From: Halothermothrix orenii H 168 | GTDB taxonomy: Bacteria > Bacillota > Halanaerobiia > Halanaerobiales > Halothermotrichaceae | Direction: 5' to 3' | Assembly (NCBI RefSeq): GCF_000020485.1 | Contig: NC_011899.1 | Coordinates: 962,501 to 1,026,500 of the forward strand | Length of the DNA stretch: 64,000 nucleotides | In this document: positions 26,736 to 46,486 of the stretch, piece by piece | How the letters are laid out: the number at the start of each line of letters is the position of its first letter | Position numbering within the stretch: the stretch's first letter is position 1 | Made by a program: the position numbers and the translations under genes | Notes under the pieces: model-generated | The model's input: only the letters and a program-made list of their open reading frames with translations | Databases searched by the model: none | What the model was told of the DNA's origin: nothing

Positions 26736-27473
26736 ATGATTAAAAGGTTTTATTTCCTGTTAAAGTTTAAAATACAAATATTATGGATTAAGTCCCTTCA
26801 GAAATTGGGATTATATAAGTCTCCGGTTTATTACCTGGGTAGTAGTGAAACCCTGCCACCTCCATTGGAGGAAGATGAGGAAGATTACCTTTTGAAAAGG
26901 TTGAGTGAGGGGGATAATAGTGTCCGGCAGTTGCTGATAAAACACAACCTTAGACTGGTTGTTTATATTGCCAGGAAATTTAGTAATACCGGTATTGATA
27001 TTGAGGACCTGGTTTCAATAGGAACTATTGGCTTGATCAAAGCGGTTAAGACCTTTGATGTTAACAAAAATATTAAACTGGCTACCTACGCTTCCCGGTG
27101 TATTGAGAATGAAATACTTATGTATTTGAGGAAAAATAGCCGTAAGAAGGCAGAAATTTCGTTCGATGACCCCCTGAATATTGACTGGGATGGTAATGAA
27201 TTAAAACTGTCAGATGTTATGGGGACTGAAGGTGATATAATTTACAGGAATATAGAATCAGAAATTGACTGGGAACTATTGAAAGATGCCATGAAAACAT
27301 TAAGTGATAGGGAGAAAAAAATCCTTATATTGAGATTTGGACTTTTAAATTCAGGAGAAACAAAGACCCAGAAGGATGTAGCTGATTTACTGGGAATATC
27401 CCAGTCATATATATCCAGGCTTGAAAAAAGAATTATAAGAAAATTAAAGAGAGAAGTGGCCAGGATGTGTTAG
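26736..27473 (+). CDS. sigE: RNA polymerase sporulation sigma factor sigma-E
   Basis: 245 residues. Early mother-cell sigma factor made as an inactive precursor: the first about 30 residues, hydrophobic and basic, form the pro-sequence, followed by [13 protein letters not shown] at the processing region. Region 2 ([26 protein letters not shown]) and region 4 with a helix-turn-helix ([21 protein letters not shown]) are clear. ATG 26736 follows taaggagg. A strong hairpin ends the unit. Confidence 0.96.
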
Positions 27474-27495: not shown

Positions 27496-27534
27496 AAGCC
27501 CAGCCGATAACTAATCGGTTGGGCTTTAATTTTA
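27496..27534. terminator. terminator after sigE, symmetric
   Basis: AAGCCCAGCCGAT (27496-27508) pairs with ATCGGTTGGGCTT (27514-27526), one G-U pair, 5-nt loop, then a T-rich tail. Runs on both sides make it usable from either strand, so it could also end the minus-strand transcript predicted from 27892. Confidence 0.85.
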
Positions 27535-27553
27535 ATTAAATAAGGGACTGGCT

Positions 27554-27582
27554 TTGCTAAATAAGGAAAAATATGGTAAAAT
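27554..27582 (+). promoter_or_regulatory. promoter upstream of the structured small transcript
   Basis: TTGCTA (27554-27559) and TAAAAT (27577-27582) are 17 bp apart. Transcription would start near 27589 and end at the hairpin at 27798-27828, giving an RNA of about 240 nt. Confidence 0.5.
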
Positions 27583-27676
27583 AAAAATAGAGCTACAAAG
27601 AAATTATATATTGATAAATTTAAATTAATTAAGGCCTCCAGTTACCGGTCACGGGCTATGAAAGGAGGTGATGATA

Positions 27677-27766
27677 GTGCGTCTCCTGTTTAATACCTTG
27701 ATCGCACTAACATTTTTTGCCATCACCATCGATATAGCCCTACACATAGATGTATATATTTTCTAA
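27677..27766 (+). CDS. 29-residue hydrophobic peptide, candidate type I toxin
   Basis: GTG 27677 to TAA 27764-27766. The peptide starts MRLLFNTLIALTFFAITI and ends HIDVYIF: one basic residue at the N-terminus, then a single membrane-spanning stretch. The ribosome site GAAAGGAGGTGAT (27660-27672) matches 13 consecutive bases of the complement of the 16S rRNA 3' tail, far stronger than most genes here. Both site and start lie within helices of the surrounding RNA. A membrane peptide with tightly masked translation resembles type I toxins (Fst, TxpA, Ibs and similar in size and character), but no family similarity is recognised. Confidence 0.55.
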   Translation: MRLLFNTLIALTFFAITIDIALHIDVYIF

Positions 27767-27797
27767 CTGACATGAGGACCGGTAATGGAGGCTCTAT

Positions 27798-27828
27798 CCG
27801 GGCAGGGTAAACTGCCCGGTTTTTTTTT
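27798..27828 (+). terminator. terminator of the peptide-encoding RNA
   Basis: CCGGGCAG (27798-27805) pairs perfectly with CTGCCCGG (27812-27819), followed by nine T residues. It is only efficient on the plus strand, since the minus side lacks a T-run. Confidence 0.92.
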
Positions 27829-27862
27829 ATGTTTTTAGTATATAATATGTTAATTATAAAAA

Positions 27863-27930
27863 ATATTGACAATTATTATTATAAATTTGGACAAGTATAT
27901 ATTACCATAATAAATAAAAATTGTCAATAT
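27863..27930. repeat. 12-bp perfect inverted repeat
   Basis: ATATTGACAATT (27863-27874) and AATTGTCAATAT (27919-27930) are exact inverted copies 44 bp apart. Each contains a TTGACA facing the other. It lies in very AT-rich DNA (27829-28100) that otherwise shows no gene. It could be an operator pair or a promoter duplication. Confidence 0.6.
27899..27927 (-). promoter_or_regulatory. minus-strand promoter facing the small transcript
   Basis: On the minus strand TTGACA (27927-27922) is followed after 17 bp by TAATAT (27904-27899). Transcription would start near 27892 and run antisense across the whole peptide-encoding RNA; the hairpin at 27798-27819 lacks a T-run in this direction, and the symmetric sigE terminator could stop it. 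This would be the antitoxin RNA in a type I system. AT-rich DNA can give chance promoters. Confidence 0.45.
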
Positions 27931-28104
27931 ACAAGATATTAATCTATATATAAATTTGAAACAATTATTTATATAACAAAGTAATTTTAAATAACTTGTG
28001 AAGAAGTTTTTTTTTGCTTGTTTAATCTCTATAATATTGTATTTAAATATTAACATAGATATTACTGAAAATGACCAGGGGCTTATGGTTACCTATATTT
28101 ACAT

Positions 28105-28133
28105 GTATAAATAGGGTAACGATGGCAATAATG
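28105..28133 (+). promoter_or_regulatory. sigma-F/sigma-G-type promoter of sigG-spoIIR
   Basis: GTATA (28105-28109) is followed after 14 bp by GGCAATAATG (28124-28133), matching the forespore consensus GYATA...GGNNANANTR at every defined position. The start would be near 28140, 34 bp before sigG. In Bacillus sigG and spoIIR are sigma-F targets, so the match fits. Confidence 0.75.
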
Positions 28134-28173: not shown

Positions 28174-28956
28174 ATGGGAAACAAGGTAGAAATAAGTGGA
28201 GTAAACACTTCAGAACTACCTGTTTTATCCAATGAAGAAATGCGTAAGCTCTTTAAGAAAATGCAGCAGGGCGACTGGTCAGCTCGTCAGAAGATAATAA
28301 ATGGGAACTTAAGATTAGTATTAAGTGTGATACAACGTTTTAATAATCGAGGAGAAAATGTTGATGACCTTTTTCAGGTTGGTTGTATTGGTTTAATTAA
28401 AGCCATTGACAACTTTGATTTAAGTCAAAATGTCAGGTTTTCAACCTATGCTGTTCCCATGATTATCGGTGAGATAAGAAGGTATTTAAGGGACAATAAT
28501 CCTATCAGGGTCAGTCGTTCATTACGGGATACTGCCTATAAAGCCCTGCAGATGAAAGAGAGCTTAAAAAATAAAAAGTCAGAAGAACCCTCATTAAAAG
28601 AAGTTTCTGAAGAACTGGGAATTCCCAGATCTGAGATTATATTTGCGCTGGATGCGATTCAGGACCCGATTTCCCTCTTCGAACCTATCTACCATGATGG
28701 TGGTGACCCCATATTTGTCATGGACCAGATAAGTGATGAGAAAACAGAGGATGAAAACTGGCTTGAAGGTATTGCGGTCAGGGAGGGATTAAGAAAGTTA
28801 AGTCCCAGGGAAAAGCTTATTCTGGCTTATAGATTTTATGAAGGCAAGACCCAGATGGAGGTAGCCAATGAGATCGGAATATCTCAGGCCCAGGTTTCAA
28901 GACTGGAAAAGGCTGCATTAAAAAGGTTAAAAAGGCATGTAAAGGAGGATAGATAA
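28174..28956 (+). CDS. sigG: RNA polymerase sporulation sigma factor sigma-G
   Basis: 260 residues. Late forespore sigma factor. The N-terminal segment KVEISGVNTSELPVL is diagnostic for sigma-G. Region 2 (NLRLVLSVIQRFNNRGENVDDLFQVG), region 3 and region 4 (QMEVANEIGISQAQVSRLEKAA) follow. ATG 28174 has the site cgggggga. It lies behind a forespore-type promoter and 2 bp before spoIIR, so the two are very likely co-transcribed in the forespore. Confidence 0.97.
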   Translation: MGNKVEISGVNTSELPVLSNEEMRKLFKKMQQGDWSARQKIINGNLRLVLSVIQRFNNRGENVDDLFQVGCIGLIKAIDNFDLSQNVRFSTYAVPMIIGEIRRYLRDNNPIRVSRSLRDTAYKALQMKESLKNKKSEEPSLKEVSEELGIPRSEIIFALDAIQDPISLFEPIYHDGGDPIFVMDQISDEKTEDENWLEGIAVREGLRKLSPREKLILAYRFYEGKTQMEVANEIGISQAQVSRLEKAALKRLKRHVKEDR

Positions 28957-35056: not shown

Positions 35057-35083
35057 TATAAAAAATAAATATTGAATAATAAC

Positions 35084-35318
35084 AGTGAATGAGAGAGTAG
35101 CATATAATTGATTTTACAGCGACCTGGGTATGGTGAAAGCCAGGAAATTAGTTATATGTGAAGATCACTCAGGAGTTGGCAGGTTGAATTTGAAGTAGGT
35201 CTGCCCGCTGACCGGCGTTACAGGTTGGAGTGAGTATAATTGCAAATGAATTGTGCAATTGTACTAAATAGGGTGGTACCGCGGTCCTTTCGCCCCTTGG
35301 GCGTAAAGGGCTTTTTTT
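35084..35318 (+). promoter_or_regulatory. T-box riboswitch, isoleucine-specific
   Basis: The T-box sequence AGGGTGGTACCGCG (35270-35283) is followed by a terminator (arms within 35286-35309, core CGCCC/GGGCG, then seven T residues). Upstream is the long stem I with its AG-bulge/apical part (cctgg...ccagg). The probable specifier codon is ATC at 35164-35166 in gaagATCactc, fitting tRNA-Ile and the ileS gene downstream. Uncharged tRNA-Ile would stabilise the antiterminator. From 35319 to 35473 there is only one further hairpin (GATAACC 35327-35333 with GGTTATC 35342-35348) and AT-rich leader. Confidence 0.93.
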
Positions 35319-45610: not shown

Positions 45611-46320
<710 letters not shown>

Positions 46321-46414
46321 CCCTTGAAATCAGTCCCGTGAGGCTGATAAGGGTGGTTGTTTAACACTGGATAACCATCTCCTTATCAGTCTGTGGCTGG
46401 TAAGGAGTTTTTTT
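46321..46414 (+). promoter_or_regulatory. PyrR attenuator 2 (pyrR-uraA)
   Basis: CCTTGAAATCAGTCCCGTGAGG begins directly after the pyrR stop; its GTCCCGTGAGGCTG loop follows the PyrR site pattern. CTCCTTATC (46379-46387) pairs with GGTAAGGAG (46399-46407), 8 of 9, then seven T residues. CTGATAAGG (about 46344-46352) offers the alternative antiterminator pairing with ccttatcag. Confidence 0.88.
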
Positions 46415-46486
46415 GTATATTATTAAGACTGTTAAACAGTCTGGTATTGAAACAAATGAACTGAAAACTTAACAGGAGGGATATTA

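What the first reader, a model, noticed from the sequence alone, without database searches (positions are those of the whole stretch)
27589..27828. Candidate type I toxin mRNA: a 29-residue membrane peptide inside a fully nested RNA fold
Between sigE and sigG, four helices nest without conflict (P1 27634-27650/27777-27792; P2 27653-27659/27734-27740; P3 27667-27673/27721-27727; P4 27675-27681/27703-27709). Within them lies a GTG-started peptide of 29 residues with one membrane span. Its ribosome site matches 13 bases of the 16S tail complement, and P3 and P4 bury that site and the start codon. The RNA's ends pair with each other, and it has a promoter and a perfect terminator. Known type I toxin mRNAs (hok, bsrG, aapA) show this design. 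Nothing in the gene order of Bacillus predicts a gene here.
Basis: partly seen in the sequence, partly recalled or inferred. Interest (0 to 1): 0.8.

Follow-up and report, generated by a model that had tools for sequence, protein, structure and literature searches.

The report
Orphan bsrG-like type I toxin–antitoxin candidate
Between two sporulation genes of the heat- and salt-loving bacterium Halothermothrix orenii lies a tightly folded small RNA that hides the start of a 29-residue membrane peptide and is faced by a strong promoter for an opposing RNA; together they look like a previously undescribed self-poison and antidote pair of a well-known general kind.

Summary
One search gives the four helices, MFE -81 kcal/mol, z -5.66. 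Of 389 window segments the core has the lowest energy, and its z is second only to a segment holding a PyrR site. The 13-base Shine-Dalgarno match is unique in the genome. A type I toxin mRNA is the best reading.

Four additions. (1) A strong extended -10 promoter on the minus strand (27927-27899) faces the RNA tail-to-tail; an antisense RNA would start about 64 nt past the toxin 3' end, as in bsrG/SR4, which I ran as positive control. (2) The 5' GGCCUCC pairs with the SD in nascent RNA and with the 3' GGAGG in full-length RNA, so the SD is predicted mostly closed at every length. (3) The sigE-sigG gap is 111-253 nt in ten relatives, 700 here: probably an acquired insertion. (4) No homologue was found in 58 relatives, phages or plasmids, nor by architecture in 84,980 species, so no covariation test is possible.

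Transcription, toxicity and the antitoxin are untested. Most likely a new member of a known kind, without sequence link to any known toxin family.

The parts
27554..27582 (+). toxin promoter, TTGCTA-17-TAAAAT with TG before the -10 (9/12); predicted start of RNA at about 27589
   Evidence: shuffled region reaches this quality in 0.8%
27589..27828 (+). predicted toxin mRNA, 240 nt
   Evidence: MFE -81.0, z -5.66; ends inferred from promoter and terminator
27589..27632 (+). A/U-rich 5' leader, unpaired at 60 C; possible ribosome standby site (inference)
27633..27639 (+). 5' anti-SD element GGCCUCC: pairs with the SD in nascent RNA, with the 3' GGAGG in full-length RNA
27633..27650 (+). P1 5' arm (partner 27777-27793), 5'-3' closing helix
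27653..27660 (+). P2 5' arm (partner 27733-27740)
27660..27672 (+). 13-base Shine-Dalgarno GAAAGGAGGTGAT, unique in the genome
27665..27673 (+). P3 5' arm (partner 27721-27730), covers the SD
27675..27683 (+). P4 5' arm (partner 27700-27709), covers the start codon
27677..27766 (+). GTG-started ORF, 29-residue membrane peptide (candidate toxin)
   Evidence: GRAVY 1.62
27787..27791 (+). 3' GGAGG, SD-like partner of the 5' anti-SD element within P1
27798..27828 (+). intrinsic terminator, 8-bp stem then T9
27899..27927 (-). facing promoter TTGACA-17-TAATAT with TG (10/12), candidate antitoxin promoter
   Evidence: one of 2 on the minus strand and 7 in all of this quality in 64 kb; shuffles P 0.006
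27700..27892 (-). putative antisense (antitoxin) RNA, start about 27892; 3' end not defined (27700 is only an example by analogy with the extent of SR4)
   Evidence: inferred from the promoter; one search found no clear terminator before the sigE hairpin at 27518-27504
27529..28095 (.). stretch absent from the sigE-sigG gap of ten relatives (probable insertion; borders approximate)

Best explanation
[quoted passage not shown] The plus-strand RNA (27589-27828) encodes a 29-residue membrane peptide, and its translation is held off in stages. While the RNA is being made, the 5' GGCCUCC pairs with the SD. Once RNA polymerase passes about 27740, P2-P4 take over the SD and start codon. When the 3' end emerges, the freed 5' element pairs with the terminal GGAGG and closes the molecule. 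An antisense RNA started near 27892 runs tail-to-tail into the toxin RNA and pairs with its 3' part, marking it for RNase III and, by displacing P2-P4, letting the 5' anti-SD capture the SD again. If antisense supply stops, the remaining toxin RNA is opened (by processing, ribosome standby or heat; not determined) and the very long SD drives synthesis of a membrane-damaging peptide. Shown by sequence and computation: ORF, SD, folds, terminator, both promoter matches, absence in relatives. Inferred: transcription of both RNAs, translation, toxicity, antisense action, activation step.
For: Fold z -5.66; lowest energy of 389 windows, z second only to a PyrR-containing segment. With SD-to-start held fixed and both flanks shuffled, MFE at 60 C is -34.7 against -15.7 +/- 3.0, 0 of 400 shuffles. 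SD-core openness stays at or below 0.21 at every length from 27672 to 27828, with hand-over from the 5' anti-SD to P3 between 27738 and 27744 and 5'-3' closure by 27792 (60 C). SD of 13 bases, unique in the genome, duplex -22.2 kcal/mol with the standard 16S tail, GTG start; in B. [quoted passage not shown] Facing minus-strand promoter 10/12 plus TG, shuffles P 0.006, with no evident minus-strand gene ahead of it. Positive control bsrG: 5'-3' closure, SD openness 0.08-0.09, z -7.0, opposing promoter with start about 60 nt past the terminator. If antisense covers 27700-27828 the 5' anti-SD recaptures the SD, openness 0.04.
Against: No homologue, hence no covariation and no test of selection on the peptide. 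The SD-closure statistic alone is modest (21 of 400 shuffles do as well). No clear terminator for the antisense RNA. Removing the 3' end does not open the SD in the predictions, so the activation step known for aapA is not reproduced. The peptide lacks the basic tail of many known toxins (one Arg, two Asp). No RNA or toxicity data.
Confidence: 0.68

Rival explanations
1. A small-peptide gene of another use, for example a sporulation or membrane-stress peptide, whose mRNA folds to limit translation. It sits between sigE and sigG, and short membrane peptides are known in sporulation (SpoVM, from general knowledge).
For: Gene neighbourhood; a true ORF with a strong SD.
Against: Absent from the same gap in ten relatives that have sigE and sigG; promoter looks like a vegetative extended -10 type; a facing antisense promoter and a buried SD are not expected of an ordinary peptide gene.
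Confidence: 0.12
2. A structured non-coding regulatory RNA; the SD and short frame are incidental, or the SD-like stretch serves only as a pairing element.
For: Very stable fold; no protein family match.
Against: The 13-base SD is unique in the genome and lies at correct spacing before a start codon that opens a hydrophobic frame ending before the 3' arm of P1.
Confidence: 0.1
3. A leader-peptide attenuator controlling sigG, with the terminator at 27798 as the switch.
For: Short ORF followed by a terminator upstream of sigG.
Against: Terminator and P1 do not overlap and no alternative antiterminator appears in the folds; sigG lies 345 nt further on, behind a promoter-like stretch shared with relatives that lack the element.
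Confidence: 0.04
4. A decayed inverted-repeat mobile element (MITE-like), with P1 as its terminal repeats.
For: Present only in H. orenii as an insertion with imperfect 17-bp inverted ends.
Against: Single copy in the genome, no copies in 60 relatives; the inner nested helices, SD and terminator are not explained.
Confidence: 0.04

Closest known systems
bsrG/SR4 (B. subtilis phage SPbeta; Hol_Tox family PF16935)
   Same: Small hydrophobic ORF enclosed by a 5'-3' helix, SD shut at all nascent lengths, own promoter and terminator, convergent antisense promoter with start about 60 nt past the toxin 3' end (pairing at 3' ends, PMC6562991).
   Different: No sequence similarity; no Hol_Tox match although BsrG matches; 29 versus 38 residues; longer SD; antisense RNA not shown and its terminator not found.
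txpA/RatA and yonT/SR6 (B. subtilis)
   Same: Exceptionally long SD of 11-12 bp (PMC3531473) and, in yonT, a GUG start (PMC5848175); antisense overlap at the 3' ends.
   Different: Toxins of other sequence and length (YonT 58 residues); yonT is on a polycistronic mRNA. No direct sequence comparison beyond family profiles.
aapA3/IsoA3 (Helicobacter pylori)
   Same: An upstream aSD hairpin in nascent RNA, then a downstream aSD inside the ORF, then a 5'-3' long-distance interaction (PMC6733600).
   Different: In aapA3 the 3' end itself masks the SD and 3' trimming activates; here the 3' end pairs with the 5' anti-SD while P2-P4 keep the SD, and 3' trimming does not open it in silico.
hok/Sok
   Same: 3' end folds back on the 5' end; metastable 5' structure; SD masked by a downstream anti-SD (as described in PMC6733600).
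   Different: No Hok profile match; hok relies on an overlapping mok leader frame and Sok acts in the 5' region (PMC6562991), here the antisense promoter is on the 3' side.
Type I modules of Clostridioides difficile (CD2907.1-RCd9 and others)
   Same: Convergent toxin and antisense RNAs in Clostridia whose toxins have no sequence link to others (PMC6563280).
   Different: Toxins of 50-53 residues (PMC6563280); not compared by sequence here.

Membership tests
type I toxin-antitoxin module (functional class) | small hydrophobic, membrane-spanning ORF with a ribosome site | tested here: met
   29 residues, GRAVY 1.62, 13-base SD, GTG; translation itself not shown
type I toxin-antitoxin module (functional class) | toxicity of the peptide on expression | not testable with these tools
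   needs expression in a laboratory strain
type I toxin-antitoxin module (functional class) | antisense RNA that base-pairs with the toxin mRNA | tested here: inconclusive
   strong facing promoter at 27927-27899 minus; no RNA data, 3' end undefined
type I toxin-antitoxin module (functional class) | toxin mRNA folded so that its SD is masked (common, not universal) | tested here: met
   (prediction only)
Hol_Tox / BsrG-TxpA family (PF16935) | match to the Pfam profile or similarity to BsrG | tested here: not met
   control BsrG matches at 1.8e-08
other toxin families held in Pfam, NCBIfam or PHROGs | profile match | tested here: not met
   no family up to E 10 (low power for 29 residues)
known RNA family (Rfam 15) | covariance-model match to 27589-27828 | tested here: not met
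aapA/IsoA | removal of the 3' end opens the SD | tested here: not met
   openness unchanged for ends from 27744 to 27828 (prediction)

The most novel reading that the evidence does not exclude
An orphan type I toxin-antitoxin family, found so far only in H. orenii, that joins the bsrG layout (3' convergent antisense, 5'-3' closed mRNA) with an aapA3-like staged lock: one 5' anti-SD element first masks the SD, is then parked on an SD-mimicking 3' end, and can re-mask the SD when antisense RNA removes the inner helices.
Probability: 0.4. Interest if true: 0.62.

Novelty: new member of a known kind. Interest (0 to 1): 0.5.

Why it matters
It would extend type I toxin-antitoxin modules to a thermophilic halophile and add a sequence-unrelated toxin found by RNA anatomy rather than by homology. 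It would also offer a Firmicutes case of co-transcriptional SD masking, shown in vivo so far for aapA3 of Helicobacter (PMC6733600), with the 5' GGCCUCC and terminal GGAGG as testable parts. No paper on type I modules in Halothermothrix or Halanaerobiales was found, though only open-licence papers were searched.

Tried and rejected
Homologue search by DNA in the own genome and 60 relatives: single copy, no relative. Peptide search in order and class: two weak hits (L018 E 1.4, L036 E 0.36) read and rejected as chance. Covariance model R1, built on the one sequence: only itself; one E 5 hit (L038) rejected. Architecture pattern (CCTCC, 12-base SD, start, GGAGG) in 84,980 genomes and IMG/VR: 7 and 2 hits, none with a short membrane ORF in a comparable fold. 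MITE, attenuator, sporulation-peptide and non-coding readings considered and ranked lower. The own 16S tail could not be read (masked). A first background scan timed out and was repeated smaller. The whole genome was not available as a file, so no genome-wide screen for similar RNAs was made beyond the model search.

Full report
Where it is. The window lies in a single 2,578,146-bp chromosome, the exact length published for Halothermothrix orenii H168 (PMC2626281), a thermohalophilic anaerobe of the Halanaerobiales. The genes on either side are SigE (26736-27473) and SigG (28174-28956) by NCBIfam equivalogs.

The observation. Folding 27589-27828 gives -81.0 kcal/mol against -53.6 +/- 4.9 for shuffles, z -5.66, with the four helices as described. 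They remain at 60 and 68 C. Among 389 windows of 165 nt across the 64 kb, the core has the lowest energy, and its z (-5.6) is exceeded only by the segment starting at 46291, which contains a PyrR site found by Rfam. So the fold stands out as much as a recognised structured RNA does. No Rfam family matches it.

The peptide. GTG at 27677 opens a 29-codon frame, GRAVY 1.62. GAAAGGAGGTGAT ends 4 nt before it and occurs once in the genome. The 11-mer inside it occurs 8 times, and some of those precede ordinary genes, such as a 476-residue protein. The genome's own 16S tail is masked, so complementarity is to the standard tail, known from general knowledge. In B. subtilis the two strongest SDs belong to the type I toxin genes txpA and yonT (PMC3531473), and yonT starts with GUG (PMC5848175).

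How the fold behaves as it is made. At 60 C, for nascent RNAs ending from 27672 to 27732, the 5' GGCCUCC (27633-27639) pairs with the SD (probability 0.79-0.99). Between 27738 and 27744 the SD passes to P3 (0.96). By 27792 the 5' element pairs with the 3' GGAGG (1.0). SD-core openness never exceeds 0.21. With the SD and start held fixed and both flanks shuffled, none of 400 shuffles reaches the energy, while 21 of 400 match the closure. The energy is therefore the strong result and the closure statistic a modest one. Equilibrium folds of growing RNAs stand in here for real folding kinetics.

The opposing promoter. On the minus strand, TTGACA-17-TAATAT with TG before the -10 (27927-27899) is one of two matches of that quality on that strand in 64 kb and seven on both strands; shuffles of the region reach it in 0.6%. 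It points at the 3' end of the toxin RNA, and no evident minus-strand gene lies ahead that it could serve. A transcript would start near 27892, 64 nt beyond the toxin 3' end. Its own 3' end is unclear: no good terminator was found before the sigE hairpin. The two promoters' -10 regions form a 12-nt inverted repeat.

Positive control. The bsrG locus of phage SPBc2 (L057) was treated the same way. Its mRNA closes 5' to 3', the SD stays shut (0.08-0.09) at every nascent length, z is -7.0, and an opposing TTGCAA-18-TATAAT match lies at 1027-998, so that its start falls about 60 nt past the bsrG 3' end. Published work states that SR4 and bsrG pair at their 3' ends and that binding extends SD masking (PMC6562991). 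In the H. orenii RNA, blocking 27700-27828 as if bound by antisense returns the SD to the 5' anti-SD, openness 0.04, a similar outcome.

Evolution. In ten relatives the sigE-sigG gap is 111-253 nt, with a terminator and the sigG promoter region only; here it is 700 nt. The added DNA holds the module and a very AT-rich stretch of 10-20% GC. No copy or relative was found by DNA, peptide, covariance model or architecture. This fits a horizontally gained or fast-changing module.

Membership. It works like bsrG/SR4 and shares the staged-masking idea of aapA3 (PMC6733600). It is not filed in either family: there is no sequence similarity to BsrG, no Hol_Tox match while BsrG matches, and in silico 3' trimming does not open the SD as it does in aapA. 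As a type I module in the functional sense, the hydrophobic ORF and SD masking are met by sequence and prediction, the antisense is supported by a promoter only, and toxicity is untested.

Verdict. A real, well-formed feature, most likely a type I toxin-antitoxin module of a new sequence family (0.68). The chief gaps are RNA evidence, toxicity, the activation step and any homologue.

Noticed in passing
window 45611-45706 and 46318-46416: Two PyrR binding sites (Rfam RF00515), as expected for a pyr operon; the 46291 segment is the only one with a lower fold z than the element.
   Followed up: no
window 35076-35300: T-box leader (Rfam RF00230, 138.6 bits).
   Followed up: no
window 27572-27583 and 27898-27909: The -10 regions of the toxin and antisense promoters form a 12-nt inverted repeat (92%), TATGGTAAAATA / TATATTACCATA, so two near-identical extended -10 elements face each other.
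   Followed up: partly
window 27998-28114: GTG-started frame of 38 codons (VKKFFFACLISIILYLNINIDITENDQG...) resembling the start of a signal peptide, in the AT-rich insert, without a visible SD; no PHROGs match. Possibly chance.
   Followed up: partly
window 28092-28115: CCTATATTTACATGTATAAATAGG, a near palindrome over the sigG promoter region, partly shared with relatives (TTACATGTATAAATA).
   Followed up: no
L049 (genome 161584) and L050 (genome 269207): Extended SD AAGGAGGTGAT not followed by ATG, GTG or TTG at 2-13 nt; possible non-standard start codons such as ATT.
   Followed up: no
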